DNA from: Cupriavidus pauculus
GTDB lineage: Bacteria > Pseudomonadota > Gammaproteobacteria > Burkholderiales > Burkholderiaceae
Reading direction: 5' to 3'
Length of the DNA: 64,000 nt
Assembly (NCBI RefSeq): GCF_022179805.1
Contig: NZ_BPUO01000004.1
Span: forward strand, 434,001 to 498,000
Made by a program: the position numbers and the translations under genes. The notes beneath the pieces are model-generated. The model was not told where the DNA came from and made no database searches. It worked only from the letters and a program-made list of their open reading frames with translations. Below are positions 8,157 through 24,761 of the stretch, piece after piece. Numbering within the stretch: the stretch's first letter is position 1; the number at the start of each line of letters is the position of its first letter.

Positions 8157-8628
8157 CTACCGTTTCCTTCTCTAGTCTTGTGGGCTCCGTGGACGTTTCC
8201 GGCGGCAACGGTATGGGGGCTGCCGTTTTGTTTGTGTTTCATTAGTAAAACAATGAACTACATAGGAAACGTTTGAGCGAAATATAGGCACGACATCGAA
8301 CGGCGTAGATAGGGAGCAACCCTAGTGCGGTCGGGCGGTGACAGTGGCGAGCGCGCCCGGCACCACTCCGTCGAGGGGGAAGGCGCACGGCGGGCGTGGT
8401 GCGCGGCGCACCGGCTTGGCGCGGCGCGGCGTGTCGGGTGAATCGACAAACGACGTCCGGGCGAACGCCGAGGCGGATCTCGCGGCGGACAGGCGATTGC
8501 CCCATCGCGGGGCCGTGTGCCGGGGGCCATGCACCGGCTTCGAGACCGCGCAGCTGCCAGCAATTTTTCTACTTGTTTACCCTGATCCCACGCCCTGAAG
8601 GACTGCGCCTATAGTCGAGAGGTTTTAT
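8157..8628. other. Intergenic regulatory region between porin and hydrolase genes
   Basis: About 470 bases without a convincing gene. The short open frames here have no family-like content and lie in GC-rich sequence. The left end holds the tandem operator-like motifs upstream of the porin. The right end contains a possible minus-10 element (TATAGT at 8610-8615) and a GAGAGG ribosome site (8617-8622) for the hydrolase. Nothing is recognised in the middle, about 8290-8570. Confidence 0.6.
8236..8270. promoter_or_regulatory. Tandem IclR-type operator candidates upstream of the porin
   Basis: Two 16-base imperfect palindromes lie 19 bases apart. The first is GTTTCATTAGTAAAAC (8236-8251); the second, read on the minus strand, is GTTTCCTATGTAGTTC (8255-8270). 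They are 80-115 bases upstream of the porin start. The same motif recurs at 8622-8656, 9609-9683 and 24727-24761. Assignment to the IclR paralogues is inference from co-occurrence. Confidence 0.5.
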
Positions 8629-8656
8629 TTGCGAACGGTTATTTCATATATGGAAC
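8622..8656. promoter_or_regulatory. Tandem operator candidates over the hydrolase start region
   Basis: GTTTTATTTGCGAACG (8622-8637) and ATTTCATATATGGAAC (8641-8656) are again 19 bases apart and resemble the motif upstream of the porin. They overlap the start region of the hydrolase, downstream of the possible TATAGT minus-10 element, a position suited to repression. Confidence 0.45.
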
Positions 8657-9531
8657 ACATTGCGTCGCATCAGCCACTCGACCCCGGCGCGGGTTTGCTG
8701 GCCGCGCTGGACAGCCATTTCGCCGAGCGCGTGGTGATGACCGGCAGCGACGGCACGCGCACGGCCTGCCGCGTCGGCGGATCGCGCGGGCCGGTCATCG
8801 TGCTGCTGCATGGCATCAGTTCGGGCGCGGCATCGTGGCTGCCTTGCGCGAGCCTGCTGGCGGCGCAGGCGCGCGTGATTGCTTGGGATGCGCCGGGCTA
8901 CGGCCAGTCGTCGCCATTGCCCATGCCGGCGCCTGCCGCGCGCGACTACGCGCTGCGGCTCGAAGCACTGCTGGCGGCGCTGCGGGTGCGGCCGGACCTG
9001 ATCGTCGGCCATTCGCTCGGGGCGTTGATGGCGTCGGCCTACGCCGCGCACGCCGCGCCCGACGCGCAGCCGGACCGCTTCCTGTTGCTGAGCCCGGCGC
9101 TGGGCTACGGCGCGCCAGGCAAGGAAGAAAAGTCGCGCGACGTGGCGCGGCAGCGGATCGAATCGCTGGAATCGCTTGGCGTCGACGGGCTCGCGCAGCG
9201 CGGCCCGACGCGGCTGCTCAGTGCGGCCGCGACGCCCGATGCCCGCGCCTGGGTGCAATGGAACATGCAGCGGCTGAACCCCGACGGCTATCGCCAGGCC
9301 GTGGGTTTGCTGTGTGGCGACGACATCGGCCCCTATCTGCAGGCACGCACGCGCCCGGTGGACGTGGGCTGCGGTGCTGCGGACGTGGTGACCACGCCCA
9401 CCGCATCGGCAGCGCTGGCGCAACGCTTCGACCTGCCGTTCCATGACATCGCCGATGCCGGCCACGCCTGCTACATCGAGCAACCGCAAGCGGTGGCGCG
9501 TTTGATTCGCGCCACCGTCTCTGGCAGCTGA
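8629..9531 (+). CDS. Alpha/beta-fold hydrolase (ring-cleavage-product or enol-lactone hydrolase type)
   Basis: A 300-residue soluble hydrolase with the alpha/beta-hydrolase layout: oxyanion motif VLLHGISSGAASW, the strand ARVIAWDAPGYGQS, the nucleophile elbow VGHSLGAL (Ser), and a late catalytic His in ADAGHACYIEQP. This combination is common in enzymes such as MhpC/BphD-type C-C hydrolases and 3-oxoadipate enol-lactonase. In this setting, next to a Rieske oxygenase and an extradiol-type dioxygenase, hydrolysis of a ring-cleavage product is plausible but not shown. The TTG at 8629 has a GAGAGG ribosome site; the ATG at 8650 lacks one but is a reasonable alternative. Confidence 0.82.
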   Translation: MRTVISYMEHIASHQPLDPGAGLLAALDSHFAERVVMTGSDGTRTACRVGGSRGPVIVLLHGISSGAASWLPCASLLAAQARVIAWDAPGYGQSSPLPMPAPAARDYALRLEALLAALRVRPDLIVGHSLGALMASAYAAHAAPDAQPDRFLLLSPALGYGAPGKEEKSRDVARQRIESLESLGVDGLAQRGPTRLLSAAATPDARAWVQWNMQRLNPDGYRQAVGLLCGDDIGPYLQARTRPVDVGCGAADVVTTPTASAALAQRFDLPFHDIADAGHACYIEQPQAVARLIRATVSGS

Positions 9532-9558
9532 GCAGCACCTGAAGTCACTACCGCGTCT

Positions 9559-9583
9559 GCGCTGGCCGGATATCGGCCAGCGC
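9559..9583. terminator. Perfect hairpin downstream of the hydrolase
   Basis: GCGCTGGCCG and CGGCCAGCGC form a perfect 10-base stem around a 5-base loop, 28 bases past the hydrolase stop. There is no T run, so it may be a weak or Rho-assisted terminator or an mRNA-stabilising hairpin. Confidence 0.45.
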
Positions 9584-9608
9584 CCCCTCTCCGGCGCGGG
9601 TTAACCCC

Positions 9609-9683
9609 GATCAATCTTTAAACCGTCGTTGTCTATAGTCGTACCTGTGTTCAATATTTAAACTCGTGTTTCATAGGTAAAAC
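9609..9683. promoter_or_regulatory. Operator cluster upstream of the Rieske operon
   Basis: Three related elements are seen: GATCAATCTTTAAAC (9609-9623), GTTCAATATTTAAAC (9649-9663) and GTTTCATAGGTAAAAC (9668-9683). The last two are about 20 bases apart, as at the porin and hydrolase promoters. A possible minus-10 (CTATAGT, near 9633) lies between them; the same CTATAGTCG string occurs before the hydrolase. The cluster is about 80-155 bases upstream of the first gene of the oxygenase operon. Confidence 0.5.
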
Positions 9684-9764
9684 GCAGAAAGCGCAAAACC
9701 TGACGAAAGCGAGCAGCGGATTGAGCCAGCCGTCCCCACACAGCAAGCCATGGAGCAAAGCGCA

Positions 9765-10070
9765 ATGGAAAGCCTCGCTTACAACCCGAACCTGGTTCCC
9801 TGGGAGCGTTCCGCGCCCAACAACGTTGCCGGCAAGGGTCACATCGAGAAGCCCGGCCACGTGCCCAACATCGTCTGGCAGACGCGCGCCGCCGCGCCCA
9901 CCGCCTACGAGAACGCGCTGGGCGATGCGCTGGAAGCCGCCTTCGAAGGCGGTGCCAAGTCTCCGGAAGACATCGTGCGCGCCTTCAACCGCGCGGGCTT
10001 GCTGGCCGCCGACGGCCAGTCGTGGACCGAGGAAGGCTTCCTCGCCGAGATGCGCCGCCTGGGCGCCTGA
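9765..10070 (+). CDS. Small protein with recombinase-like helix-turn-helix C-terminus
   Basis: A 101-residue protein that opens the oxygenase operon. The N-terminal half (ESLAYNPNLVPWERSAPNN) has no motif I recognise. The C-terminal half, SPEDIVRAFNRAGLLAADGQ followed by SWTEEGFLAEMRRLG, resembles the small DNA-binding domain after the catalytic domain of large serine recombinases (pattern: N-x-x-G, then a W-[ST] turn, then a final helix). No catalytic recombinase domain is present. The ATG at 9765 has GGAG nine bases upstream; the earlier ATG at 9750 has no ribosome site. Encoded 34 bases before the Rieske subunit, it may be an accessory or regulatory partner; function unknown. Confidence 0.7.
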   Translation: MESLAYNPNLVPWERSAPNNVAGKGHIEKPGHVPNIVWQTRAAAPTAYENALGDALEAAFEGGAKSPEDIVRAFNRAGLLAADGQSWTEEGFLAEMRRLGA

Positions 10071-10104: not shown

Positions 10105-11160
10105 ATGGAATCAAACAAGCAAGCACGCGCCGAAGCGCGCCTCAACACCGGCCTGCGTAACTACTGGTACCCGGTGGCTGCGTCGTGGCAGGTCACGCAT
10201 GCGCCCATCGGCATCACGCGCCTGGGTCAGGACATCGTGGTCTGGCGCGACAAGGCCGGCCGCCTCAACGCGCTGGAAGACCGCTGCCCGCACCGTGGCG
10301 CGCGGCTGTCGATGGGCTGGAACCTTGGCGACCGCGTGGCGTGCTGGTACCACGGCGTGGAAGTGGGCGGCGACGGCCAGGTCAAGAGCGTGCCGGCAGT
10401 GGAGAACTGCCCGCTCGAAGGCCGCACCTGCGTGCGCAGCTATCCGGTGGAAGAACAGGCCGGCGCCATCTTCCTGTGGTTCGGCGACCGCGCGCCCACC
10501 GGGGCCGACGCGCTGCACCTGCCGGAGGAACTGGTCAGCGACGAACACACCAACTTCCTGTGCGTGGCGCACTGGGACTGCAACTACCGCTACGCCATCG
10601 ACAACGTGATGGACCCGATGCACGGTGCCTACCTGCATGCGGTGTCGCACTCGATGGCCAGCGGCGAGAAGTCGGCCACGATGCAGGTGGTGGAGACCGA
10701 GCACGGCCTGGTCTTCGAGAAGACCGGCCAGCGTGGCGTGAACTTCGACTGGGTGGAATTCGGTGAGACCGGCACGCTGTGGCTGCGCCTGTCGATTCCG
10801 TACCGCGACAGGGTGGGCCCCGGCGGCCCGTTCGGCATCGTCGGTATCGCCACGCCGGTGGACGAGGATCACTGCCAGGTGTTTTTCTGGCGCACCCGCC
10901 ACGTGCAGGGCTGGGAGCGCGACGTGTGGCGCTTCCTGTATCGCAACCGCCTGGAGGGCCTGCACTGGGACGTGCTGGAGCAGGACCGCGTGGTGCTGGA
11001 GTCGATGGCGCCGAACGCGCGCGATCGCGAGATGCTGTACGCGCACGATGCCGGCATCACGCGCGTGCGCCGTCTGCTGAAGCGACGTGCCGATGCCGAA
11101 GTGGCCGACGAACCGGTGGCCATGCTGCAACCGGTGACCGGAGCGCACAGCCATGCCTGA
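10105..11160 (+). CDS. Rieske-type aromatic ring-hydroxylating oxygenase, catalytic subunit
   Basis: A 351-residue non-haem iron oxygenase. The N-terminal Rieske domain binds a 2Fe-2S cluster through C61-x-H63 (CPHRGARLSMGW) and C80-x2-H83 (CWYHG). The C-terminal catalytic domain carries the mononuclear iron motif D170-x2-H173-x4-H178 (NVMDPMHGAYLH). The length and the absence of a beta-subunit gene point to the one-subunit phthalate/vanillate-type (group I) oxygenases. These use a PDR-type reductase, which is encoded at 19232 in the same cluster. The expected reaction is hydroxylation or O/N-demethylation of an aromatic acid; the substrate cannot be read from sequence. The SDR gene that follows overlaps its stop by 8 bases. 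Confidence 0.9.
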   Translation: MESNKQARAEARLNTGLRNYWYPVAASWQVTHAPIGITRLGQDIVVWRDKAGRLNALEDRCPHRGARLSMGWNLGDRVACWYHGVEVGGDGQVKSVPAVENCPLEGRTCVRSYPVEEQAGAIFLWFGDRAPTGADALHLPEELVSDEHTNFLCVAHWDCNYRYAIDNVMDPMHGAYLHAVSHSMASGEKSATMQVVETEHGLVFEKTGQRGVNFDWVEFGETGTLWLRLSIPYRDRVGPGGPFGIVGIATPVDEDHCQVFFWRTRHVQGWERDVWRFLYRNRLEGLHWDVLEQDRVVLESMAPNARDREMLYAHDAGITRVRRLLKRRADAEVADEPVAMLQPVTGAHSHA

Positions 11161-11923
11161 CGTCACGTACGCCAACCTGCTGGCCGGCCGCAAGGTGCTG
11201 GTGACCGGTGCCGCGCGCGGCCTGGGCCTGGCCTTTGCCACAGCCATCGCCGAAGCCGGCGCCAGCGTGGCCATGGCCGACATCCTGGCCGACCGCGTCA
11301 ACGAATCGGCCGCCACATTGAAGGCGCGCGGCTTCAACGTGGTGCCGCTGCAGCTCGACCTGAACGATCCCGCTTCGGTGCGGGCCTGCGCCAACGCCGC
11401 GGCCGAAGCGCTCGGCGGGCTGGACGGCCTGGTCAACAACGGCGCGGTGACTGATTCCGGCGGGCGTGGACTGACCGAGCTGGACATCGACACGTGGGAC
11501 CGCGTGATGAACGTCAACGTGCGCGGCACCTGGCTGATGACGGCCGCCTGCACGCCCGCGCTGCGTGCCAGCGGCCGGGGCGCGGTGATCAACCTGGCAT
11601 CGGACACGCCGCTGTGGGGCGCGCCGAACCTGCTGGCCTACGTGGCCAGCAAGAGCGCCATCATTGGCATGACCCGCTCGCTGGCCCGCGAACTGGGCGA
11701 GGCCAATGTCACGGTCAACGCTGTGGCACCGGGCCTGACGCTGGTGGAAGCCACCGAATACGTGCCGCAGCACCGGCACGACCTGTACCGCAACCAGCGC
11801 GCCATCCAGCGCGAGCAGGTTCCCGATGACGTCTGCGGCGCCGTGCTGTTCGCGCTGTCCGACCTTGCCCGTTTCGTGACCGGCCAGACGCTGGCGGTCA
11901 ACGGCGGCTTCGTCATGCAATGA
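11153..11923 (+). CDS. Short-chain dehydrogenase/reductase
   Basis: A 256-residue NAD(P)-dependent SDR with an intact active site. It has the nucleotide-binding motif VTGAARGLGLAF, NNGAV in place of NNAG, Ser in NLASD, and the catalytic pair Y163-x3-K167 (YVASKSA). Directly after a Rieske oxygenase such an enzyme often oxidises the cis-dihydrodiol to the catechol; that role is inferred. The start codon overlaps the oxygenase stop by 8 bases, indicating translational coupling. Confidence 0.88.
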   Translation: MPDVTYANLLAGRKVLVTGAARGLGLAFATAIAEAGASVAMADILADRVNESAATLKARGFNVVPLQLDLNDPASVRACANAAAEALGGLDGLVNNGAVTDSGGRGLTELDIDTWDRVMNVNVRGTWLMTAACTPALRASGRGAVINLASDTPLWGAPNLLAYVASKSAIIGMTRSLARELGEANVTVNAVAPGLTLVEATEYVPQHRHDLYRNQRAIQREQVPDDVCGAVLFALSDLARFVTGQTLAVNGGFVMQ

Positions 11924-11946
11924 GCAATCTCCCCTGAGGAATGGAA

Positions 11947-12483
11947 ATGAGCGATCTGTCGCAACAGCAAAACATCAAGCGCACCTGGGAGCAGCCGGAC
12001 GGCGCTTCGTTCGAATCGTGGATGGAGTCGCGTGTGGCGCGCTTCAGCACCCGCCGCTACGACTGGGATGCACTGAAGTTCCAGGCCGACTACGACCCGA
12101 AGTACCGCCGCGCGCAGATGCGTTACATGGGCACGGGTGGCACGGGTGTGGCCGCGGACGCCAACACGGTGCCGTCGGAGCACTTCACGTTCTCGACGAT
12201 GATCATCCCGGCCGGCCATGAAGGCCCGTCGCACCTGCACACCGACGTCGAAGAGGTGTTCTTCATCCTGCGCGGCAAGATCAAGCTGATCCTGGAAAAG
12301 GACGGCGAGCGCTTCGAGACCATCCTGACCGACCGTGATCTGGTGTCGGTGCCGCCGGGCGTGTACCGCGAGGAAATCAACATCGGCGAGGAAGACGCGC
12401 TGATGTGCGTGATGCTGGGCGCCAAGAAGCCGATCACGCCGACCTATCCGCCGGAACACCCGCTGACCCAGGTCAAGCGCTGA
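11947..12483 (+). CDS. Cupin-domain protein
   Basis: A 178-residue protein with one cupin barrel. The metal-binding motif 1 is recognisable in PAGHEGPSHLHTDVEEVFFIL (the two His and the following Glu), and the second motif is represented by VSVPPGVYREEIN. Cupins in catabolic operons act as dioxygenases, isomerases or sensor-like binding proteins. The ATG at 11947 is preferred because AGGA lies six bases upstream; the ATG at 11941 touches that site. A role in ring cleavage or isomerisation is possible but not demonstrated. Confidence 0.8.
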   Translation: MSDLSQQQNIKRTWEQPDGASFESWMESRVARFSTRRYDWDALKFQADYDPKYRRAQMRYMGTGGTGVAADANTVPSEHFTFSTMIIPAGHEGPSHLHTDVEEVFFILRGKIKLILEKDGERFETILTDRDLVSVPPGVYREEINIGEEDALMCVMLGAKKPITPTYPPEHPLTQVKR

Positions 12484-12504: not shown

Positions 12505-13365
12505 ATGAGCGCCAATCCCGAAACCGTTGCCGGCCTGATCGCCGAGGGCCAGGACAGGTACATCGTCCCGGGCCTGGAACGCGGCCTGCGCCTGCTGGCC
12601 GAGTTCAACGCGCGTGACCGCGTGCTGTCGGCGGCCGACCTGTCGCGCCGGCTCGATGTGCCGCGTTCCACGGTGTTCCGCCTGCTGGCCACGCTGGAGG
12701 CCACCGGCTACGTGGAGCGGGCCGATGGCGGGCGCGAGTACCGGCTGGGACTGGCGGTGCTGCGGCTCGGCTTCGACTACCTGGCTTCGCTGGAACTGAC
12801 CGAACTGGGCGGCCCGTTGCTGAACCGCCTGCGTGACGACATCGAATACCCGTGCAACCTCGTGGTGCGCGACGGGCGTTCGGTGGTGTACGTGGCCAAG
12901 GCCGCCGCGTCGCGTCCGTTCGCCAGCAACATCAACGTGGGCGCGCGCCTGCCGGCGCATGCCACGGTGCTGGGCCACGTGCTGCTGGAGGACATGGAAC
13001 TGGAGCCGCTGCGCGAGCTGTATCCGGAGCCGCAGCTTCAGGTCTATTCGGACAGCACGCCGCGCACCGTGGAAGCGCTGCACGAACTGGTGCAGCAGGT
13101 ACGCCAACAGGGCTACGTGCTGCACGAAGGCTTCTTCGAAGCCAGCATTTCCACGATTGCCGCACCGGTGCGCGATCGCACCGGCAAGGTGGCCGCCGCG
13201 TTGGGCGCCACGATTCCGGCGTCGCGGCTGCCGCAGGAAGAACTCGACCGCATGGTCGAAAAAGTCAGGGAAACAGCGGGTGAACTGTCGCGCCTGCTTG
13301 GCTACCGGCCCCACCGTCTCGCCAGAAGTGGGCAGGGCAAGGTGGTTCCCATGTATCGCGATTGA
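12505..13365 (+). CDS. IclR-family regulator inside the aromatic operon (paralogue of the one at 24877)
   Basis: A 286-residue IclR regulator. The winged HTH is at the N-terminus (VLSAADLSRRLDVPRSTVFRL), and the IclR effector domain follows (VVRDGRSVVYVAKA, GARLPAHATVLGHVLLEDM, GFFEASISTIAAPVRDRTG). It is closely similar to the product of 24877-25698 over about 255 residues, roughly three quarters identical by eye, with identical blocks such as VPRSTVFRLLATLE and FFEASISTIAAPVRDRT. The gene sits in mid-operon, so its product would be made with the pathway. It is the best candidate to bind the GTTTC-type operators upstream. Confidence 0.9.
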   Translation: MSANPETVAGLIAEGQDRYIVPGLERGLRLLAEFNARDRVLSAADLSRRLDVPRSTVFRLLATLEATGYVERADGGREYRLGLAVLRLGFDYLASLELTELGGPLLNRLRDDIEYPCNLVVRDGRSVVYVAKAAASRPFASNINVGARLPAHATVLGHVLLEDMELEPLRELYPEPQLQVYSDSTPRTVEALHELVQQVRQQGYVLHEGFFEASISTIAAPVRDRTGKVAAALGATIPASRLPQEELDRMVEKVRETAGELSRLLGYRPHRLARSGQGKVVPMYRD

Positions 13366-13383: not shown

Positions 13384-14187
13384 ATGTCCATGATTGAACT
13401 CGACGGCAAGGTAGCCGTCGTCACCGGCGGGTCCTCCGGCATCGGACTGGCCACGGTAGAACTGTTGCTCGAAGCGGGCGCCGCGGTGGCCATGTGCGGC
13501 CGCGATGCCGCGCGCCTGCGCGGCGCCGAGGCAACGTTGCGCGAGCGCTTTGCCGGTTGCCGGCTGTATGCGGCCACGTGCGACGTGCTCGATCCCGTGC
13601 AGGTCAACGCGTTTGCAGCCGACGTGGCGCGCGAACTGGGCCCGGTGGACATGCTCGTCAACAACGCCGGCCAGGGCCGCGTGTCGACGTTCGCCACCAC
13701 CGAGGACGCCGCCTGGTTGGAAGAACTGCAGTTGAAGTTCTTCTCGGTGATCCACGCGACGCGCGCCTTCCTGCCGCAACTCGAACAGTCGGGCCAGGGC
13801 GCCATCGTGTGCGTGAACTCGCTGCTGGCCACGCAGCCGGAGCCGCATATGGTGGCTACATCGGCCGCACGGGCCGGCGTGCACAACCTGGTGCGCTCGC
13901 TGGCCACGGAATTCGCCCCCAAGGGTGTGCGCGTCAACGGCATCCTGATCGGGCTGGTGGAGTCGGGCCAGTGGCGCCGCCGCTTCGAGGCGCGTCCCGA
14001 GGAGGACCGCCACCTTGACTGGCCGGCGTGGACCGCGCGCCTGGCCCGCCAGAAAAACATTCAACTGGGCCGTCTCGGCCTGCCGCAGGAAGCTGCGCGC
14101 GCCATCCTGTTCCTTGCCTCGCCGTTGTCTTCGTACACCACGGGCAGCCATATCGATATTTCCGGAGGACTCTCCCGTCATGCGTAA
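13384..14187 (+). CDS. SDR-family protein with substituted catalytic residues
   Basis: A 267-residue protein with a sound Rossmann start (VVTGGSSGIGLATVELL), NNAGQG and a conserved C-terminal strand (TTGSHIDISGGLS). At the active site the usual Y-x3-K is replaced: the region reads MVATSAARAGV, giving T159 and R163 where Tyr and Lys are expected. Catalysis must therefore differ from the classical SDR mechanism, or the protein binds a substrate or cofactor without classical reduction. GAGGGAG lies five bases before the ATG. Its stop overlaps the start of the ThDP enzyme by 8 bases. Confidence 0.85.
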   Translation: MSMIELDGKVAVVTGGSSGIGLATVELLLEAGAAVAMCGRDAARLRGAEATLRERFAGCRLYAATCDVLDPVQVNAFAADVARELGPVDMLVNNAGQGRVSTFATTEDAAWLEELQLKFFSVIHATRAFLPQLEQSGQGAIVCVNSLLATQPEPHMVATSAARAGVHNLVRSLATEFAPKGVRVNGILIGLVESGQWRRRFEARPEEDRHLDWPAWTARLARQKNIQLGRLGLPQEAARAILFLASPLSSYTTGSHIDISGGLSRHA

Positions 14188-15874: not shown

Positions 15875-15886
15875 ACGGAGATGTCC

Positions 15887-16708: not shown

Positions 16709-18184
16709 ATGACGACGCAACAAGTTCTCCCGATCCTGATCGCTGGCGTATGGCGCGCCGGCGGCGGCGACCGCTATGCCACGCGCTACCCCGCCACGGG
16801 CGAGGTGGTGGCCGAGCTGAACGCGGCCAGCCTGGCCGACGTAGAGGAGGCCATCCAGGGCGCGCACCAGGCGTTCCGTACCAGTGGCTGGCCCCGCCGC
16901 AAGCCGCATGAGCGTGCCGCCGTGCTGTACCGCGTGGCGGAGCTGATTCGCGCCAAGTCCGAGGCCCTGGCCCAGCGCCAGCGCCTGGACAACGGCAAGC
17001 CCATCAGCGAAACGCGCGCACTGGTGGCCAGCGCGGCCAGCACGTTCCAGTTTTTCGCCGCCGCGCTGGAAACGCTGGAAGAGCAGATCACGCCGCAACG
17101 TGGCGACTGCCTGACGATGAGCGTCTACGAGCCGATGGGCGTCGTGGCGGCCATCACGCCGTGGAATTCGCCGATCGCCAGCGAAGCGCAGAAGATGGCA
17201 CCGGCGCTGGCTGCCGGCAACGCGGTCATCGTCAAGCCGGCCGAGGTGACACCGCTGATGGCGCTGGAACTGGCCGCGATCTGCGAGGAAGCCGGCGTGC
17301 CGCGTGGCCTGATCAGCGTGCTGCCTGGCAAGGGCTCGGTGATTGGCGACGCCATCACCAAGCATCCGCTGGTGCGCCGCGTGTCGTTCACGGGCGGTAC
17401 CACCACTGGCAAGCACATCGCCCATATCGCCGCCGACAAGATGATGCCGGTGTCGCTGGAACTGGGCGGCAAGTCGCCGACCATCGTGTTCGACGATGCC
17501 GATCTCGACCACGCCGTGAATGGCGTGCTGTACGGCATCTTCAGCTCGTCGGGCGAATCGTGCATCGCAGGCTCGCGCCTGTTCGTGGCGCGCTCGCAGT
17601 ACGAGCCGTTCCTGGACCGCCTGGCGGCTGGCGCGGCGAAGCTGCGCGTGGGCGACCCGGCCGACGAGCGTACCCAGATGGGGCCGCTGATCACCGACCG
17701 GCACCGCGACAGCATCGATTCGTATGTGGCGGCGGGCGTGGACGAAGGCGGCCAATTGCGTACCGGCGGCATTCGCCCCGACGTGGCAGGACTGCCCAAT
17801 GGCTACTTCTATACGCCGACGATCATCGAAGGGCTTGGCAACGACGCGCGCATCTGCCAGGAGGAAATCTTCGGGCCGGTGCTGGTGACGATGCCTTTCG
17901 ACGACGAGGACGATCTGATCGAACAGGCCAACGACAGCATCTACGCGCTGGCCGCTGGCATCTGGACGCGCGACTACAAGCGTGCATGGCGGGTGGCACG
18001 ATCCGTGCAAGCCGGCAACGTATGGATCAACACGTACAAGCAGTTCTCGATCTCGACGCCATTCGGCGGCTGGCGCGACAGCGGACTTGGCCGTGAGAAG
18101 GGACGCCTTGGCATCCTGCAGTACATGGAGCAGAAGAGCGTGTACTGGGGCTTGAACGAACAACCGCTGCCGTGGGCCAACTGA
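16709..18184 (+). CDS. NAD(P)-dependent aldehyde dehydrogenase
   Basis: A 491-residue aldehyde dehydrogenase of normal length. The cofactor-binding region is present (TPWNSP, FTGGTTTGK), as are catalytic Glu251 (LELGGKSP) and the nucleophile Cys285 (SGESCIAGSR); the C-terminal PFGGWRDSGLGRE block is intact. It would oxidise an aldehyde intermediate to the acid, plausibly the product of the ThDP enzyme or of ring cleavage. It follows the aspartate dehydrogenase gene after 15 bases. Confidence 0.9.
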   Translation: MTTQQVLPILIAGVWRAGGGDRYATRYPATGEVVAELNAASLADVEEAIQGAHQAFRTSGWPRRKPHERAAVLYRVAELIRAKSEALAQRQRLDNGKPISETRALVASAASTFQFFAAALETLEEQITPQRGDCLTMSVYEPMGVVAAITPWNSPIASEAQKMAPALAAGNAVIVKPAEVTPLMALELAAICEEAGVPRGLISVLPGKGSVIGDAITKHPLVRRVSFTGGTTTGKHIAHIAADKMMPVSLELGGKSPTIVFDDADLDHAVNGVLYGIFSSSGESCIAGSRLFVARSQYEPFLDRLAAGAAKLRVGDPADERTQMGPLITDRHRDSIDSYVAAGVDEGGQLRTGGIRPDVAGLPNGYFYTPTIIEGLGNDARICQEEIFGPVLVTMPFDDEDDLIEQANDSIYALAAGIWTRDYKRAWRVARSVQAGNVWINTYKQFSISTPFGGWRDSGLGREKGRLGILQYMEQKSVYWGLNEQPLPWAN

Positions 18185-18227
18185 GGCCATCGCGCGCAAA
18201 CGCAAACCGGCAGGACGGAGACTGGAA

Positions 18228-19193
18228 ATGAAGGTATTGGGAATCGATGAAATCGTCTACGGCGCCGACGATTTCGATGCATGTCGCGGATTCTTCGGAG
18301 ACTGGGGCCTGGCCATCAAGCGCGACGACGCGCAGGGCCTGGACTTCGAAACGCTGAACGGCTGCCGCGTGCTGGTGCGCAAGATCGGTGACGCCGCGCT
18401 GGCACCGGCCATCGAAGAGGGCCCGACGCTGCGCGAAGTGGTGTGGGGCGTGGACAACGAAGCATCGCTGCGCGAACTGCGCGAGGCCATCGCGGGCGAG
18501 CCGACGTTCGTGTCGCTGGAAGGCGGCGCACGTATCGGCTGCACCGACCCGAACGGGCTGGCCGTACGCTTCCAGGTGTCACGCAAGCACGACGTGGCCG
18601 TGGATTGCGCGCTGATGAACACGTGGAACGACAAGCCGCGCATGAACCAGCGCAGCCCGATCTACGAACGCGCGATCCCCATCGAAGTGGGCCACGTGGT
18701 GTTCTTCGTCAAGGACGTGAAGGCCACCGAGCGCTTCTACATCGAGAAGTTCGGCTTCGTTCAATCGGACAACTACCCGGACCGGGGCGCCTTCCTGCGC
18801 TGCACGGCCGAGGGCGGTCACCACGACCTGTTCCTGCTGCAACTGCCGCATGGCAAGGCGGGGCTGAACCACGTGGCGTTCACCGTGCGCGACATCCACG
18901 AGGTGTTTGGCGGCGGCATGAACATGTCCCGCAAGGGCTGGGACACGCAACTCGGCCCGGGCCGTCATCCGATTTCGTCAGCCTATTTCTGGTACTTCAA
19001 GAATCCGGCCGGTGGCCTGATCGAGTACTACGCCGACGAAGACCAGCTCGACGCGCACTGGGAACCGCGTGCCTTCGAGCCGGGCCCCACGATGTTCGCG
19101 GAGTGGGCCATCGAGGGTGGCATTGACGGCAATACCCGCCGCCAGAAGAATGCCGGCGGACCGGAAGGCAAGTTCCTGACGGAAAAGCGGTAA
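18228..19193 (+). CDS. Two-domain VOC extradiol-type ring-cleavage dioxygenase
   Basis: A 321-residue type I extradiol-dioxygenase-like protein made of two vicinal-oxygen-chelate modules. The N-terminal module (from VLGIDEIVYGADDFDACRGF) lacks obvious metal ligands. The C-terminal module has a plausible 2-His-1-carboxylate iron site: H156 (EVGHVVFF), H215 (GLNHVAF) and E266 (GLIEYYAD). This is the expected ring-opening step after the Rieske oxygenase and SDR. GGAG lies seven bases before the ATG. Glyoxalase-like isomerase activity is a less likely alternative. Confidence 0.85.
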   Translation: MKVLGIDEIVYGADDFDACRGFFGDWGLAIKRDDAQGLDFETLNGCRVLVRKIGDAALAPAIEEGPTLREVVWGVDNEASLRELREAIAGEPTFVSLEGGARIGCTDPNGLAVRFQVSRKHDVAVDCALMNTWNDKPRMNQRSPIYERAIPIEVGHVVFFVKDVKATERFYIEKFGFVQSDNYPDRGAFLRCTAEGGHHDLFLLQLPHGKAGLNHVAFTVRDIHEVFGGGMNMSRKGWDTQLGPGRHPISSAYFWYFKNPAGGLIEYYADEDQLDAHWEPRAFEPGPTMFAEWAIEGGIDGNTRRQKNAGGPEGKFLTEKR

Positions 19194-19231
19194 AGCATCG
19201 AGCATCAAGAAGCATTGAGAAGGAAGCCGTC

Positions 19232-20188
19232 ATGAGTGCGAGCCAATCTTTGACACTGCGCGTGCAGGCCATGCGCTTCGAGGCGCGCGGCGTTGTCAGC
19301 ATCGAGCTGCGCGACCCCGCCGGCGTGCCGCTGCCCGAGTTCGCGCCCGGTGCGCATATCGACCTGCACCTGGCCAACGGCCTGGTGCGCAGCTATTCGC
19401 TGTGCGGCGCACCCGAGCAGCGCGACCGCTATACCGTGGGCGTGCTGAACGACCGCAACAGCCGGGGCGGTTCGCGCTTCGTACACGAGCAGCTGCGCGT
19501 GGGCACCACGCTGACGGTGGCCGTGCCGCGCAATCACTTCGCGCTGGACGAGGACGCCGCGCACACGGTGCTGGTGGCCGGCGGTATCGGCGTCACGCCG
19601 ATCGTCTGCATGGCGCGCCGGCTGGCCGAGCGCGGCCGCTCTTTCACGCTGCTGTACTGCGCCCGTTCGCGGGAAGAAGCCGCGTTCGTCGAGCAACTGT
19701 CGGCCTATGGCGATGCCGTGCGCTTTCACTTCGATGACGAAGCGGGCGTGCCACCGGACCTGAAGGCGATGCTGGCCGGCCAGGAGGCGGGCACGCATTT
19801 CTACTGCTGCGGTCCCGGTCCGATGCTCAACGCGTTCGAATCCGCATGCGAAGCCCACGGCTATCCGAACGTCCACATCGAGCGCTTTGCCGCCGACCCG
19901 GCCACCGAGTCGGTGCAGGAAGGCGAGTACAGCGTGCAGCTGCAACGATCGGGCAAGACCGTGCGGGTGCCGTCCGGCAAGTCGCTGCTCGATGCGCTGC
20001 TGGAGTCCGGCGTGCAGGTGGAATACAGCTGCCGCGAGGGCGTGTGCGGATCGTGCGAGACGGCCGTGGTGGAAGGCTGCCCCGAACACCGCGACAGCGT
20101 ACTGAGCAACAGCGAGCGTGCATCGAACCGGACCATGATGGTTTGCGTGTCGGGCTGCAAGGGCCAGCGCCTGGTGCTGGACCTCTGA
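19232..20188 (+). CDS. Oxygenase reductase, flavin/NAD domain plus C-terminal 2Fe-2S (PDR/VanB family)
   Basis: A 318-residue electron-transfer protein for the Rieske oxygenase. The order is a flavin-binding barrel (VRSYSLCGAP), a pyridine-nucleotide domain (VLVAGGIGVTPI and YCCGPGPM), then a C-terminal plant-type ferredoxin domain with C267-x4-C272-x2-C275-x29-C305. This order identifies the phthalate dioxygenase reductase class, which pairs with one-component Rieske oxygenases such as the one at 10105. AAGGAAG precedes the ATG. Confidence 0.92.
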   Translation: MSASQSLTLRVQAMRFEARGVVSIELRDPAGVPLPEFAPGAHIDLHLANGLVRSYSLCGAPEQRDRYTVGVLNDRNSRGGSRFVHEQLRVGTTLTVAVPRNHFALDEDAAHTVLVAGGIGVTPIVCMARRLAERGRSFTLLYCARSREEAAFVEQLSAYGDAVRFHFDDEAGVPPDLKAMLAGQEAGTHFYCCGPGPMLNAFESACEAHGYPNVHIERFAADPATESVQEGEYSVQLQRSGKTVRVPSGKSLLDALLESGVQVEYSCREGVCGSCETAVVEGCPEHRDSVLSNSERASNRTMMVCVSGCKGQRLVLDL

Positions 20189-20252
20189 CCCATCCGCGCC
20201 GCGCCGTGGATGCGCGGCCACCACGACTGCCCGCCGCAAAACGCAGAACCGC

Positions 20253-21782
20253 ATGTTTCAGGGACAAAGCGGCCACGCGGGTAACTGCCCCACACGATTT
20301 TCGGAAAAGACACCCGTGTTGACACAGAGACAAGACGCCGCGCCCATGCAGGCGGCAGCCGTTGGCTATGACGCCGCCGCTGCCGGCGATGCGGCCGCAC
20401 ACGCCCCCGCGCAATCCTCCACGCAAGCCACGCCGACCACGCGCGGCCAGATTATCGCGCGCATCGAGCGCATGCCCGGCAACATGATGCACGTGCGTGC
20501 ACGGCTGCTGATCGGGCTGGCCACGTTCTTCGACGGCTTCGATGTGATCGCCATCGCCGCGACGCTGCCGCTGCTGATCGGCAAGTGGTCGCTGACGCCG
20601 GGCCAGATCGGCTTGCTGATCGCCGCGCCGTCGGTGGGGCAGCTGGTCGGCGCGCTGCTGTTTCCCGCGCTGGCCGAACGCTTCGGGCGTTTGCGCTCGA
20701 TTGGCTGGAGTGCCGGCATCATCGGCCTGATGAGCCTGGCGTGCGGATTCGCGCCGTCATTCGAAATATTCCTGCTGCTGCGCATCGTGCAGGGGTTGGG
20801 GCTGGGCGGCGAGCTGCCCGTGGCGGCCACCTATATCAACGAGGTGACGCGCGCGCACGGACGCGGCAGGTTCGTGCTGCTGTACGAGATCGTGTTCCCG
20901 ATCGGGCTCATGGTGTCCAACGCGATGGGCGCGGTGCTGGTGCCACGCTATGGCTGGGAGGTGATGTACTTCTTGGGCGGCGTGCCTCTGGTGCTGTTCT
21001 TCGTGCTGCGCCGCCTGATTCCCGAGTCGCCGCGCTGGCTGGCCGAGAAGGGCCGGCTGGAGGAAGCCGACCAGGCGCTGCGCCAGTTCGAGGCGCGTGC
21101 CAAGCAGCCGCTGGCGCCGGTGGGCGATACGTCGCGCTTCGATGCGATGGGCGGCAAGCATCCGCGCCGCCGTGTGCGTGATCTGGTGGGCCGCGCCTAC
21201 CTGGGCCGCACGCTGGCCGTGTGGATGCTGTGGGCGACGTGCGGCTTTATCCAGTACGGGCTGTCCACGTGGCTGCCCACGATCTACAAGACCGTCTATC
21301 ACGCGCCGCTGCAACTGGCGCTGAACCTGGCGGCCGGCGCCTCGGTGCTGGGCGTGGTGGGGTCGCTGATCTGCGCGCTGGTGGTGGACAAGGTGGGACG
21401 CAAGCCGGTGATCAACGTGTCGTTCGTGCTGTGCGCGGCGTCGCTGGTGCTGGCCGGTGTGTTCCACGCGTCGTCGGTTTACGTGGTGGCCACGTTCTGC
21501 GCGATGGCGATGGGCTTCCTGGCCTGCGGCTTCATCACGGCCTATGTCTACACACCCGAGCTGTACCCGACCAGCATCCGCGCGATGGGCTGCGGCCTGG
21601 GCGGCGCATGGCTCAAGATCTCGGCCATCTTCGCGCCGGGCATCATCGCGTCGACGATCGGCACGGGCAACCTGAGCATGGCGTTCTACGGACTGGCCGT
21701 GGTGCCGCTGCTGGCTGCGGTGACCGTCTACCTGCTTGGCATCGAAACCAAAGGGCAGGTGCTGGAAGAACTGGAAGTCTGA
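20253..21782 (+). CDS. MFS aromatic acid:H+ symporter (AAHS family)
   Basis: An inner-membrane proton symporter with 12 predicted helices. The first helix carries the AAHS signature FFDGFDVIAIAATLP, loop 2-3 reads ALAERFGRLRS, and the second half has VDKVGRKPVINV. Family members (PcaK, BenK, VanK types) import protocatechuate, benzoate or similar acids. The first about 75 residues are Ala-rich and hydrophilic; true starts at 20316 (GTG) or 20346 (ATG) are equally possible because no ribosome site is decisive. As last gene of the cluster it probably imports the pathway substrate. Confidence 0.87.
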   Translation: MFQGQSGHAGNCPTRFSEKTPVLTQRQDAAPMQAAAVGYDAAAAGDAAAHAPAQSSTQATPTTRGQIIARIERMPGNMMHVRARLLIGLATFFDGFDVIAIAATLPLLIGKWSLTPGQIGLLIAAPSVGQLVGALLFPALAERFGRLRSIGWSAGIIGLMSLACGFAPSFEIFLLLRIVQGLGLGGELPVAATYINEVTRAHGRGRFVLLYEIVFPIGLMVSNAMGAVLVPRYGWEVMYFLGGVPLVLFFVLRRLIPESPRWLAEKGRLEEADQALRQFEARAKQPLAPVGDTSRFDAMGGKHPRRRVRDLVGRAYLGRTLAVWMLWATCGFIQYGLSTWLPTIYKTVYHAPLQLALNLAAGASVLGVVGSLICALVVDKVGRKPVINVSFVLCAASLVLAGVFHASSVYVVATFCAMAMGFLACGFITAYVYTPELYPTSIRAMGCGLGGAWLKISAIFAPGIIASTIGTGNLSMAFYGLAVVPLLAAVTVYLLGIETKGQVLEELEV

Positions 21783-21803
21783 CCGGCACGCACGTCGTGG
21801 TTG

Positions 21804-21841
21804 GCCCCGCAGCCGTCTTTCCCGGCGAGCGGGGCTTTTTT
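21804..21841 (+). terminator. Rho-independent terminator ending the aromatic operon
   Basis: GCCCCGC and GCGGGGC form a stem with an 18-base loop followed by six T, 22 bases after the permease stop. Confidence 0.82.
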
Positions 21842-21896
21842 GTTGCACGCGTATGCGGCCATAATGCATGTCGTCCTACAACACACCAAGGAAGAC

Positions 21897-23474
21897 ATGC
21901 GCACCCCATCGGCTTTCCACGCTCGCCCCCGCAGACTCGTGCTCGCCGCATCGCTGGCGCTGGCATCGCTGGGCGCGGCGAATGCCGCCTCGCTCGACCG
22001 CACGCAACTGGCGCAATCGGCGGACAAGGCGGCCAACGCCAGCTATCGCGAATGGGTGGAACTGCTCGCCATTCCCAACGACGCCACCGTGCCGGCCGAT
22101 ATCCAGAAGAATGTCGACTGGCTGGTCAAGGCATTTTCGCGGCGCGGCTTCCAGGCGCGTGCACTGGCCAATGGCGACAAGCCGATGGTGTACGCCGAAT
22201 TCCAGGCGCCCGGTGCCTCGTCCACGCCGCGCAAGACCGTGCTGTTCTACATGCACCTGGACGGCCAGTCGGTGACGGCGTCGCAGTGGGCGCAGAAGAG
22301 CCCGTGGGAGGCCACGCTGAAGGCGCGCTCGTCTGATGGCAAATGGGAAGCGCTGCCGCTGGACAAGCTCTACGGCGGACAGGTGGACCCGGAATGGCGC
22401 CTGTTTGCGCGGTCGTCGTCGGACGACAAGGGTCCCATCGTGATGTTCCTGGCGGCGTTTGACGCGCTGAAGGCTGCAGGCGTCGAGCCCGGCGTGAACA
22501 TCAAGGTGCTGCTGGATTCGGAAGAGGAAAAGGGTTCGCCGTCGCTGGGCAAGGTCATCGGAGAAAACCTCGAAGCGCTGCGCAACGACGGCATGGTGAT
22601 CTTCGACGGCCCGATGCACCAGAGCAACCAGCCCACGCTGGTGTTCGGCAACCGGGGCATCCAGCTCGTGCAGCTCAAGGTGTTTGGCGCCAGCCAGGGA
22701 CTGCATAGCGGCCACTACGGCAACTATTCGGCCAATCCTGCGCAGCGCATGGCCAGCCTGCTGGCCTCGATGAAGGACGACAACGGACGCGTCACGATTC
22801 CCGGCTACTACACGCCGGTGAAGATCGACGACCGCGCCCGGAAGATCATGGCCGCCGTGCCCGACGACGAGGCCGCGCTGAAGCGGCGGCTGGGCATTGC
22901 CAGCACCGAGAAGGTCGGCGCGAATTACCAGGAAGCCATGCAGTATCCGAGCCTGAACGTGCGCGGCATCGTGGCCGGCGATGTCGGGCCGAAGGCGCGC
23001 ACCATCATTCCGGAAGTGGCCATTGCGGACATCGACCTGCGCACCGTGCCCGAGACGCCGCCCGAAACACTGGTGGCGCTGCTGCGCAAGCACATCGAGA
23101 AGCAGGGCTATCACCTGGTGAACGGCGAGCCGACCGCTGAAGAGCGGGCGCGCTACCCGAAGCTGGCCGCGCTGACGGCGGACGAGGTGTCGGCATCCAG
23201 CTCGGCCGCGCGCACGGATCTGGAAGCGCCGGTCTCGCGGTGGCTGCAAGGTGTGATGAATGACACCTATGGCAAGCCGCCGGTGCAGATCCGCATGATG
23301 GGCGGCACGGTGCCGACGGGCGCCGCGGTGCAGGCACTGAAGTCGCCGTTCGTGATCGTGCCGCTGGTCAACGCCGACAACAACCAGCACAGCTTCGACG
23401 AGAACATGCGGCTGGGTAACTATCGCGACGGCATCCGAACCGTCATGGGAATCCTGCAGACGCCGTTCAAGTAA
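21897..23474 (+). CDS. Exported M20-family metallopeptidase
   Basis: A 525-residue zinc peptidase with an N-terminal signal peptide (RRLVLAASLALASLGAANAA). The M20 ligands and catalytic residues are visible: His and Asp in YMHLDGQ, Asp in SSSDDKGP, the Glu-Glu pair in LLDSEEEKGSPS, and a late His in DNNQHSFDE. The dimerisation domain sits in the middle (LHSGHYGNYSANPAQRM). It is probably a periplasmic dipeptidase or carboxypeptidase. The ATG at 21897 has AAGGAAG just upstream. It follows the terminator and is separate from the aromatic operon. Confidence 0.87.
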   Translation: MRTPSAFHARPRRLVLAASLALASLGAANAASLDRTQLAQSADKAANASYREWVELLAIPNDATVPADIQKNVDWLVKAFSRRGFQARALANGDKPMVYAEFQAPGASSTPRKTVLFYMHLDGQSVTASQWAQKSPWEATLKARSSDGKWEALPLDKLYGGQVDPEWRLFARSSSDDKGPIVMFLAAFDALKAAGVEPGVNIKVLLDSEEEKGSPSLGKVIGENLEALRNDGMVIFDGPMHQSNQPTLVFGNRGIQLVQLKVFGASQGLHSGHYGNYSANPAQRMASLLASMKDDNGRVTIPGYYTPVKIDDRARKIMAAVPDDEAALKRRLGIASTEKVGANYQEAMQYPSLNVRGIVAGDVGPKARTIIPEVAIADIDLRTVPETPPETLVALLRKHIEKQGYHLVNGEPTAEERARYPKLAALTADEVSASSSAARTDLEAPVSRWLQGVMNDTYGKPPVQIRMMGGTVPTGAAVQALKSPFVIVPLVNADNNQHSFDENMRLGNYRDGIRTVMGILQTPFK

Positions 23475-23978: not shown

Positions 23979-23990
23979 CCGCCACGGCAA

Positions 23991-24013
23991 CAGGCCGCCA
24001 CCCCGGCGGCCTG
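23991..24013. terminator. Perfect hairpin between convergent genes
   Basis: CAGGCCGCC and GGCGGCCTG form a 9-base stem with a 5-base loop between the coiled-coil gene and the convergent MarR gene. No T run is present on either side. Confidence 0.4.
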
Positions 24014-24026
24014 CCCTTATCTGCCT

Positions 24027-24551
24027 TTACTCCTTGCCCGCTCCCGTGCAGATCCCATGCAGCTTGCGCAGGCCCGAGTACAGGCCCTGGCGCTCTTCAG
24101 GCGTCAGCAGCCGGATGACCGATGCCTGCCCGCGCCGCGCCAGCGGAATGACCTGCGCATGGAGCGCCGCGCCGGCGTCGCTGATCTTGCAGGCCAGTCG
24201 CTTGCGCGGCGTGGCGCCCTCCGATTCCAGCGTCACCAGTCCTCGGTCTTCCAGTAGCCGCAGGGTCCGGCTGACCAGCGCCTTGTCCGAGGTGGACTGC
24301 TTGACCAGTTCCGCGAATGACATCGATTCGCCGTGCGCCAGCAGGGCGAGGATGCGCCATTCCGGCACGGTCAGGTCGAACTGGGTGGCATAAGGCTCCG
24401 TCACACTGCTGCGCAATGCCGTCACCAGTTGGCTGAGCATGGTGGTCAGGAAGTCGTTGACGGTCAGGCCAGTGCCGGCTTCGTCAAGATTCGACCAGGG
24501 ATCGGAGCCCCCGGCGGTGGCCGGGGGGTGCTGGGTGGTGGTACTGGACAT
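24027..24551 (-). CDS. MarR-family transcriptional regulator
   Basis: A 174-residue winged-helix regulator. After a disordered N-terminus it shows the MarR core: VPEWRILALLAHGESMSFAELV, the recognition helix SDKALVSRTLRLLEDRGLV, the wing ESEGATPRKRLACKISD, and a C-terminal dimerisation helix. It is divergent from the second IclR gene, with a GTTGA-GAGA-TCAAC palindrome between them. MarR proteins in such positions usually sense aromatic acids. Confidence 0.85.
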   Translation of the reverse strand: MSSTTTQHPPATAGGSDPWSNLDEAGTGLTVNDFLTTMLSQLVTALRSSVTEPYATQFDLTVPEWRILALLAHGESMSFAELVKQSTSDKALVSRTLRLLEDRGLVTLESEGATPRKRLACKISDAGAALHAQVIPLARRGQASVIRLLTPEERQGLYSGLRKLHGICTGAGKE

Positions 24552-24690
24552 GAGGGCGCCAAGAAGGAATGCCGGAAATTCGGCGGAAATGCGTGTGCGA
24601 TTGTCTCATATCGATTGTTGTTCGCAACTTTGTGCCGTACGACGCTACCCACTTCTCTTTTGATGCATTGTCAATTGGTAGTTTGCTTAA

Positions 24691-24704
24691 GTTGAGAGAT
24701 CAAC
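24691..24704. promoter_or_regulatory. Perfect inverted repeat between MarR and IclR genes
   Basis: GTTGA-GAGA-TCAAC, 140 bases upstream of the MarR start and about 170 upstream of the IclR start. The size fits a MarR operator. Confidence 0.4.
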
Positions 24705-24726
24705 AAACACCGCCTACATTGAAATC

Positions 24727-24761
24727 GTTCCTGGCGTGAATCTTGGTTTCATATATAAAAC
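24727..24761. promoter_or_regulatory. IclR-type operator candidates upstream of the second IclR gene
   Basis: GTTTCATATATAAAAC (24746-24761) is the most symmetric copy of the motif also found at 8236, 8641 and 9668. A weak partner, GTTCCTGGCGTGAATC, starts 19 bases earlier. The position, 116 bases before the IclR start, suits autoregulation or cross-regulation. Confidence 0.48.

What the first reader, a model, noticed from the sequence alone, without database searches (positions are those of the whole stretch)
8236..24761. Shared tandem GTTTC-type operator links four promoters and two IclR paralogues
The 16-base motif GTTTC(N6)AAAAC occurs at 8236, 9668 and 24746, and a variant at 8641. In each place a second, weaker copy lies 19-20 bases away (8255, 9649, 24727, 8622). 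The sites precede the porin, the hydrolase, the Rieske operon and the second IclR gene. Two closely similar IclR proteins are encoded at 12505 and 24877. This suggests one regulon joining the aromatic locus to the molybdenum hydroxylase locus, with binding as paired dimers two helical turns apart. The motif and spacing are seen directly; the IclR link is inference.
Basis: partly seen in the sequence, partly recalled or inferred. Interest (0 to 1): 0.75.

Follow-up and report, generated by a model that had tools for sequence, protein, structure and literature searches.

The report
Double-operator IclR regulon, two catabolic loci
Four promoters in two neighbouring catabolic gene clusters of a Cupriavidus carry the same pair of palindromes just behind the promoter, very probably binding sites of two near-identical IclR-type regulators, which makes this a well-supported but ordinary kind of bacterial switch for a pathway whose substrate is still unknown.

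Summary
GTTTC-N6-AAAAC occurs 5 times in the 6.8-Mb genome, 3 of them here. A pattern for the whole pair, drawn from the four sites, matches the own genome with 0-2 mismatches only at those four; the offset is 19 nt each time. In 20 same-genus genomes fetched, the porin, hydrolase and Rieske-operon sites are kept in 20 of 20, the Mo-hydroxylase-operon site in 18 of 20; the two exceptions have no Mo genes beside IclR B. Of 60 genus genomes 48 have the pair, the same 48 that have the IclR; the other 12 lack the Rieske gene too. Pairs with offset 19 recur in other genera of the family. The pairs sit just downstream of conserved -10-like boxes, pointing to repression. Motif type and spacing match the published IclR rule (PMC8222616), so this is a new member of a known kind. 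Beyond that: a second regulon-specific element (GGGTTAACCC-like) upstream of three promoters, two paralogues with one recognition helix, and different Mo hydroxylases behind one operator. Binding, repression and inducer are inferred, not tested.

The parts
7059..8156 (-). porin gene (Porin_4), regulated gene to the left
   Evidence: Pfam PF13609, E 5.9e-52
8236..8270 (-). tandem operator of the porin promoter: strong palindrome 8236-8251, weaker 8255-8270, offset 19
   Evidence: strong site kept in 20 of 20 relatives fetched
8281..8286 (-). presumed -10 box TATATT of the porin promoter, 10 nt upstream of the operator
   Evidence: read; position conserved in 21 of 21 rows
8310..8324 (-). upstream element TAGGGTTGCTCCCTA (read on the - strand), presumed second regulator site
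8574..8587 (+). upstream element TGTTTACCCTGATC of the hydrolase promoter
   Evidence: one of 3 genome matches to KGKTWACCCYRRTC (reversed control 1)
8610..8615 (+). presumed -10 box TATAGT of the hydrolase promoter, 6 nt upstream of the operator
   Evidence: read
8622..8656 (+). tandem operator of the hydrolase promoter: weaker 8622-8637, strong 8641-8656; the strong palindrome overlaps the likely ATG at 8650
8650..9531 (+). alpha/beta hydrolase gene (start codon presumed)
   Evidence: Pfam Abhydrolase_6, E 3.6e-21
9598..9612 (+). upstream element GGGTTAACCCCGATC of the Rieske-operon promoter
9634..9639 (+). presumed -10 box TATAGT of the Rieske-operon promoter, 9 nt upstream of the operator
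   Evidence: read; position conserved in 21 of 21 rows
9649..9683 (+). tandem operator of the Rieske-operon promoter: weaker 9649-9664, strong 9668-9683
9765..10070 (+). 101-aa protein gene with HTH_62 domain, first gene of the Rieske operon
   Evidence: Pfam PF20552, E 3.4e-26; homologue in 37 of 43 loci compared
10105..11160 (+). Rieske oxygenase gene (Rieske + VanA_C domains)
   Evidence: Pfam; start read
11153..12483 (+). SDR dehydrogenase (11153-11923) and cupin (11941-12483) genes of the operon
12505..13365 (+). IclR paralogue A, inside the Rieske operon
   Evidence: HTH_IclR + IclR_C; 75% identical to paralogue B
13384..23474 (+). rest of the operon: SDR, TPP enzyme, aspartate dehydrogenase-like, aldehyde dehydrogenase, extradiol dioxygenase-like, ferredoxin reductase, MFS transporter, M20 peptidase
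   Evidence: same strand, gaps under 70 bases
24692..24720 (+). promoter-like -35 TTGAGA and -10 TACATT of the IclR-B / Mo-hydroxylase operon
   Evidence: 1 found, 0.4 expected in shuffles
24727..24761 (+). tandem operator of the IclR-B / Mo-hydroxylase operon: weaker 24727-24742, strong 24746-24761
24877..25698 (+). IclR paralogue B
   Evidence: HTH_IclR + IclR_C
25733..29524 (+). TctC solute receptor (25733-26791), [2Fe-2S] subunit (26749-27357) and Mo-cofactor subunit (27341-29524) of a molybdenum hydroxylase

Best explanation
The four sites are double operators of one local IclR-type regulon. Each holds two palindromes with centres about 19 nt apart, placed directly downstream of the -10 box and covering the presumed transcription start. 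The IclR proteins encoded in the two loci (A at 12505, B at 24877) carry the same recognition helix and most likely bind these operators as two dimers on one DNA face (a tetramer). They would block initiation or promoter escape until an intermediate of the pathway releases them. The regulon comprises uptake (porin, TctC receptor), the alpha/beta hydrolase, the Rieske-oxygenase operon including IclR A, and the IclR-B / Mo-hydroxylase operon, so both regulators would be under their own control. The three promoters of the Rieske locus also share a GGGTTAACCC-like element about 43 nt upstream of the inferred start, probably the site of an unidentified activator. Shown: sites, spacing, rarity, conservation, position relative to conserved -10-like boxes, co-occurrence with IclR. 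Inferred: binding by IclR, tetramer, repression, inducer, the activator.
For: Rarity: exact motif 5 per genome, 3 here; pair pattern at 0-2 mismatches only at the four places. Conservation: porin, hydrolase and Rieske sites in 20 of 20 relatives fetched, B site in 18 of 20. Column identity over 21 sequences (18 for B): strong palindrome 0.86-0.94, weak 0.82-0.91, flanks 0.44-0.68. Offset -19 is the best partner position at all four promoters. IclR link: 48 of 60 genus genomes have the pair, exactly the 48 with IclR at E <= 1e-60; 12 of 12 without it lack the pair; reversed control 0 in 60 of 60. A and B share the core recognition helix PRSTVFRLLATLE. Four Ralstonia records keep the pair at the Rieske promoter. 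In 18 of 18 loci scanned (16 of other genera of the family, 1 Ralstonia-like, G016) the best pair has offset 19 and p <= 0.02 against shuffles, with 18-21 allowed. Mo link: same pair at the head of two arrangements of the operon, a pair at the Mo genes inside the Rieske locus of G016, no site where no Mo genes were found beside IclR B. Repressor geometry: -10-like box at a nearly fixed distance upstream; the strong hydrolase site overlaps the likely ATG. Precedent: IclR group 1 motifs and tandem sites 18-22 nt apart, tetramer binding (PMC8222616).
Against: No binding or expression data. The 12 genomes without IclR also lack the Rieske gene (with 6 of 6 positive controls), so the co-occurrence is that of a whole module. 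Helix and site do not change strictly in step across the family: L147 has the PRTTVFRLLQTLE helix of other genera but a Cupriavidus-like site GTTTCACATATGAAAC. The strong palindrome is 16 bp (GTT-10-AAC), one base shorter than the published GTT-11-AAC class. The partner sites are weak and some read better as 15-mers. The scoring matrix was built from sites in these same loci and the pair pattern from the four sites. The sigma-70 scan finds no standard promoter at the Rieske-locus promoters, so those -10 boxes rest on conservation. Some IclR proteins are activators. A MarR gene next to the B operator is an alternative regulator there.
Confidence: 0.78

Rival explanations
1. IclR A/B bind these double sites but act as activators, or as dual regulators like PcaU/PobR, rather than as plain repressors.
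For: Both proteins have TIGR02431 (PcaR/PcaU/PobR) as best NCBIfam match, though below its cut-off; the IclR family includes activators and dual regulators (PMC8222616, introduction read). The Rieske-locus promoters lack a standard sigma-70 promoter match.
Against: The sites lie downstream of the conserved -10-like boxes and, at the hydrolase, over the likely start codon, a poor place for an activator; a separate conserved upstream element is in a better position.
Confidence: 0.13
2. A different regulator, such as the MarR-type protein at 24027-24551 or an unlinked factor, binds the GTTTC pairs; IclR is a bystander in the cluster.
For: MarR stands beside the B operator in 16 of 20 relatives, and IclR and sites come and go as one cluster.
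Against: MarR was not found (E <= 0.01, within the fetched DNA) in 4 of 20 B loci that keep the site (L075, L078, L079, L082). The published IclR class predicts this motif type and spacing (PMC8222616). A different palindrome, GTTGA-N4-TCAA, lies beside the B operator in 18 of 18 rows and may be the MarR site, though it is present in those four loci as well.
Confidence: 0.07
3. The similarity is chance or a compositional accident of A+T-rich intergenic DNA.
For: With 2 mismatches the single 16-mer is not enriched in the window (17 against 13.2 expected), and the weak partners are poor matches.
Against: Exact copies and the pair are strongly concentrated here, reversed-pattern controls are 0 in 60 of 60 genus genomes, and columns of the palindromes are conserved above their flanks.
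Confidence: 0.01

Closest known systems
IclR-family group 1 tandem operators (Suvorova and Gelfand 2021, PMC8222616)
   Same: Palindrome of GTTYC...GRAAC type; tandem palindromes with 18-22 nt between centres; IclR-family gene inside the regulon; catabolic and transport genes as targets.
   Different: Strong palindrome is GTT-10-AAC (16 bp) instead of GTT-11-AAC (17 bp); one operator set in two loci with two paralogues; a second conserved element upstream. Whether this regulon is already in the paper's supplementary tables could not be checked.
PcaR / PcaU / PobR subfamily (TIGR02431)
   Same: Best NCBIfam match for both proteins (181.6 and 179.8 bits).
   Different: Below the family cut-off of 284.75 bits; the genes behind the operators are not recognisable beta-ketoadipate pathway genes; sites are GTTTC-type, not the GTTCGAT-type printed for PcaU in PMC8222616.
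TtgV of Pseudomonas putida (PDB 2XRO, as described in PMC8222616)
   Same: IclR family; its complex with DNA is the only one that paper names, and tetramer binding is the model for paired sites.
   Different: Regulates efflux pumps; not compared residue by residue here, and not among the 12 chains found by sequence for P0002 at E <= 1e-10.

Membership tests
IclR-family transcription factor | HTH_IclR domain plus IclR_C effector domain | tested here: met
   Both domains above Pfam cut-offs in both proteins
IclR group 1 motif, GTT-11-AAC subgroup | GTTYCRY ... RYGRAAC inverted half-sites | tested here: met
   Strong sites GTTTCAT-N2-RTRAAAC in the window; GTTCCAT-N2-ATGGAAC-like in many loci of other genera
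IclR group 1 motif, GTT-11-AAC subgroup | 17-bp palindrome with 11 bases between GTT and AAC | tested here: not met
   Strong sites have 10 bases between GTT and AAC; some weak partners read better as 15-mers
IclR tandem-site regulons | two palindromes with 18-22 nt between centres | tested here: met
   19 nt at all four; -19 is the best partner offset at all four promoters
IclR tandem-site regulons | protein binds as a tetramer to the pair | not testable with these tools
   needs footprinting or gel shift
PcaR/PcaU/PobR subfamily (TIGR02431) | score at or above the curated cut-off | tested here: not met
   181.6 and 179.8 bits against 284.75
PcaR/PcaU/PobR subfamily (TIGR02431) | control of beta-ketoadipate pathway genes | tested here: inconclusive
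   Genes behind the operators are a porin, hydrolase, Rieske operon and Mo hydroxylase; the hydrolase matches PcaDC at 87.4 bits, far below its cut-off of 390; pca genes elsewhere in the genome were not searched

The most novel reading that the evidence does not exclude
The two paralogues, with one recognition helix but separately evolving effector domains, compete for or mix on the same double operators, so that the whole regulon integrates two different pathway signals (one from the Rieske branch, one from the Mo-hydroxylase branch). An unidentified activator at the GGGTTAACCC-like element adds a third input at the uptake, hydrolase and Rieske promoters. Other genera of the same family would have arrived at a two-regulator design independently, since their IclR pairs fall in a clade of their own in the tree (the split between their two copies is itself weakly supported).
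Probability: 0.3. Interest if true: 0.62.

Novelty: new member of a known kind. Interest (0 to 1): 0.45.

Why it matters
It defines a compact regulon, recurrent across a bacterial family, with named operators for a pathway whose substrate is unknown: whatever releases the IclR proteins is likely to be a pathway intermediate, so the operators give a handle on the orphan pathway. It also offers a natural series of promoters (operator kept, missing, or present before a different enzyme) for studying how a regulon follows genes that move, and a case of two near-identical regulators on one set of operators.

Tried and rejected
Single 16-mer with mismatches as evidence: not enriched in the window; only exact copies and pairs are informative. 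Off-cluster single sites in the own genome (10 loci looked at): no convincing partner at 18-22 nt among the three best partners printed for each; one weak partner at 22 nt (L025). Not taken as regulon members. Three genus genomes without IclR have one single-palindrome hit each (G011, G027, G051); those of G011 and G027 have no good partner, that of G051 was not looked at.

Pathway identity: kynurenate/quinaldate degradation was considered because of the enzyme mix; the structure searches and a paper search gave no support, so the substrate is left open. A similar cluster in Pseudomonas aeruginosa was recalled from memory; two paper searches on it returned nothing and it was not tested.

HTH_62 protein as the factor for the GGGTTAACCC element: considered and not adopted, because the gene was not found in L147, L149 and L152, which still show a GGGTTT-type element upstream of a pair.

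Co-variation of helix and site as proof of binding: considered and dropped, because L147 breaks it. In one search a coordinate slip lost most reverse-strand loci (50 proteins); one search corrected it (85), but the helix table was not printed again. My first Rieske query carried residues of a wrong frame at its start; one search repeated the absence test with the corrected gene and six positive controls. Dropping the co-variation argument is why confidence is 0.78 and not 0.8 as I had first written.

Class-wide search for relatives (274 genomes) found only the own genome at E <= 1e-65; the family search (299 genomes) was used instead. Papers: two read in part, PMC8222616 (abstract, introduction part 1, results part 1, regulog section, discussion, passages) and PMC6449761 (passages only, 12 of 19 places). 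No paper on an IclR regulator of this cluster appeared in the listings; supplementary tables could not be opened, so it may be listed there. Motif scores use a matrix built from sites in these loci.
Full report
Observation. The three exact GTTTC-N6-AAAAC copies are part of a total of five in the 6.8-Mb genome; the symmetric form GTTTYAYNNRTRAAAC has three copies without mismatch genome-wide, all here, and eight with one mismatch elsewhere. From the two off-cluster copies of the first form, three or more in 16.5 kb has a probability of about 2e-8. Allowing two mismatches, the single 16-mer is not enriched in the window, so the case rests on exact copies and on pairing. A pattern for the whole 35-bp pair, drawn from the four sites, finds those four in the own genome without mismatch, nothing at one or two, and 18 rows at three. 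Of the 18, three are the same sites on the other strand and one lies in front of another, distant IclR gene; the reversed control gave 2 and 6 matches. The offset is exactly 19 nt at all four.

Surroundings. To the left a porin gene reads away. To the right come the alpha/beta hydrolase and then a long same-strand operon: a 101-aa HTH_62 protein, Rieske oxygenase, SDR, cupin, IclR A, SDR, TPP enzyme, aspartate dehydrogenase-like protein, aldehyde dehydrogenase, extradiol dioxygenase-like protein, ferredoxin reductase, MFS transporter and M20 peptidase. No motif hit of note stands directly before IclR A, which would follow the operon promoter. The fourth site heads IclR B, a TctC receptor and a two-subunit Mo hydroxylase. 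IclR A and B are 75% identical; the next relative in the genome is 36%.

Promoter anatomy. At the three promoters of the Rieske locus a TATAGT/TATATT box lies 6-10 nt upstream of the first palindrome. Across 21 genomes a TATA/TATC box stays within a base or so of that position in 21 of 21 rows (Rieske), 21 of 21 (porin) and 18 of 21 (hydrolase; the three others read TATG). At the fourth promoter a TTGAGA-17-TACATT match ends 6 nt before the first palindrome (0.4 such matches expected by chance). The operators therefore cover the presumed start region, and the strong hydrolase palindrome overlaps the likely ATG at 8650. This is the geometry of repression. It is an inference, because no start site is mapped and the sigma-70 scan finds no standard promoter in 8150-9760.

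Conservation in the genus. Record titles of close loci name the genus Cupriavidus. In 20 same-genus genomes fetched, the porin, hydrolase and Rieske strong sites are present in 20 of 20 and the B site in 18 of 20. Anchored on the strong palindrome and without gaps, column identity is 0.86-0.94 in the strong palindrome, 0.82-0.91 in the weak one and 0.44-0.68 in the flanks (21 sequences for three promoters; for B 18 of 21, two having no site and L091 falling below the script's cut). Flanks shift in ungapped rows, which exaggerates the contrast. The best partner offset is -19 at every promoter. Across 60 genus genomes the pair pattern is found without mismatch in 48, reversed control 0 in all 60; these are exactly the 48 that encode the IclR at E <= 1e-60. 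The other 12 also lack the Rieske gene, while six of six positive-control genomes show it, so this is the presence or absence of a whole module.

Beyond the genus. Of the loci, 18 of 43 were scanned. The four titled Ralstonia (L118-L120, L122) keep the pair at the Rieske promoter; a fifth record with that title, L102, is the contig of G053 and belongs to the window's genus. In other unnamed genera of the family the cluster is recognisable, with IclR proteins mostly 53-60% identical to B. In 18 of 18 loci scanned (16 of those genera, L163, and G016's L165) the best pair in the porin-to-Rieske region, or the corresponding region where no Rieske homologue was found, has offset 19 and p <= 0.02 against 200 Markov shuffles, although offsets 18-21 were allowed; second pairs at the other promoter are often weaker (p up to 0.07). 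L146, which has no cluster, and L164 were not in that scan. Sites drift towards GTTCCATATATGGAAC and helices read PRTTVFRLLQTLE in many of those genera, but not in step: L147 has that helix with a Cupriavidus-like GTTTCACATATGAAAC.

The Mo-hydroxylase link. In the window's group (9 of the 20 relatives) the B site heads IclR B - TctC - [2Fe-2S] - Mo subunit. In 9 others it heads a TctC gene with a different [2Fe-2S] gene and IclR B about 5.7 kb further on; in the one read in full, L084, the order is TctC, Mo-cofactor large subunit, FAD subunit, [2Fe-2S] subunit, CoxG-like protein, IclR B. So the enzyme type differs under the same operator. In G016, with a single IclR match, homologues of the window's Mo genes (77 and 82%) lie between porin and Rieske behind their own pair (L165 position 8096). 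In two relatives (G009, G012) no Mo genes were found within 10 kb of IclR B on either side (L116, L117) and no site stands before it; the rest of those genomes was not searched for Mo genes. Some relatives also have remote pairs in front of uptake genes: TctC in G003, G005 and G007, and an ABC ATPase with an NMT1-type binding protein in G016 (Pfam for L171 and L173; L168 and L170 by reading).

A second element. The three promoters of the Rieske locus share a GGGTTAACCC-like element whose centre lies 31-33 nt upstream of the first base of the -10 box, about -43 from the inferred start. A pattern drawn from two of them has 3 matches in the own genome, two being those, reversed control 1. Similar sequences stand in about the same place at G016's Mo promoter, the remote uptake promoters and the Ralstonia-like Rieske promoters; in other genera they are less regular (by eye). 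The definition is post hoc and the protein is unknown; an activator is the simplest guess.

Two regulators. The core recognition helices of A and B are the same. In the tree the proteins of the other genera form one starred clade of 27 rows (L146 excepted, a long branch), which has two groups of its own; the split between those groups and the order of branches at the base of the Cupriavidus proteins are not well resolved.

Comparison with the known. Suvorova and Gelfand (PMC8222616) describe IclR motifs of this type and report tandem sites with 18-22 nt between centres in 94 orthologous groups, explained by tetramer binding. Our strong site is one base shorter than their GTT-11-AAC subgroup. 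Both proteins score below the PcaR/PcaU/PobR cut-off. The finding is therefore a new member of a known kind, and may already be listed in that paper's supplement, which could not be opened.

Verdict. Observation confirmed, interpretation supported. Binding, repression, tetramer and inducer remain to be shown. Interest is moderate: the architecture is known, while the shared two-regulator, two-locus design and the orphan pathway are worth testing.

Noticed in passing
window 9765-10070: A 101-aa protein with a recombinase-like helix-turn-helix domain (HTH_62) is the first gene of the Rieske operon; a homologue was found in 37 of 43 loci compared. Its role is unknown.
   Followed up: partly
window 24691-24704: Palindrome GTTGAGAGATCAAC overlaps the -35 of the IclR-B promoter; GTTGA-N4-TCAA is present in 18 of 18 B-promoter rows, also in loci where no MarR gene was found nearby. 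It could be the operator of the divergent MarR gene at 24027-24551.
   Followed up: partly
L190 (own genome, contig C5, 195989-196023): A 3-mismatch hit to the pair pattern consists of two palindromes at offset 19 in front of another, distant IclR gene (C5:196176-196910, 26% identical to B), as if that regulator had a tandem operator of its own.
   Followed up: partly
L084 3955-9410 against window 25733-29524: Two different kinds of Mo hydroxylase (three-subunit set with a CoxG-like protein, or two-subunit) stand behind the same operator in different same-genus genomes.
   Followed up: partly
L118, L165 and window 8650-9531: The alpha/beta hydrolase gene lies between cupin and IclR in the Ralstonia loci, in G016 and in 15 of 16 cluster loci of other genera, but has its own promoter with its own double operator in the window and in the 20 A loci of the genus fetched first.
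   Followed up: partly
L168, L170, L171, L173: Double operators far from the cluster in some relatives precede transporter genes, so the regulon seems to include remote uptake genes there.
   Followed up: partly
window 21801-23474: The M20 peptidase gene at the end of the operon was detected in only one of the 20 relatives' B loci (L075).
   Followed up: no
G040:C25:2846-2880: One further exact match to the pair pattern in a relative lies outside the cluster; its surroundings were not read.
   Followed up: no
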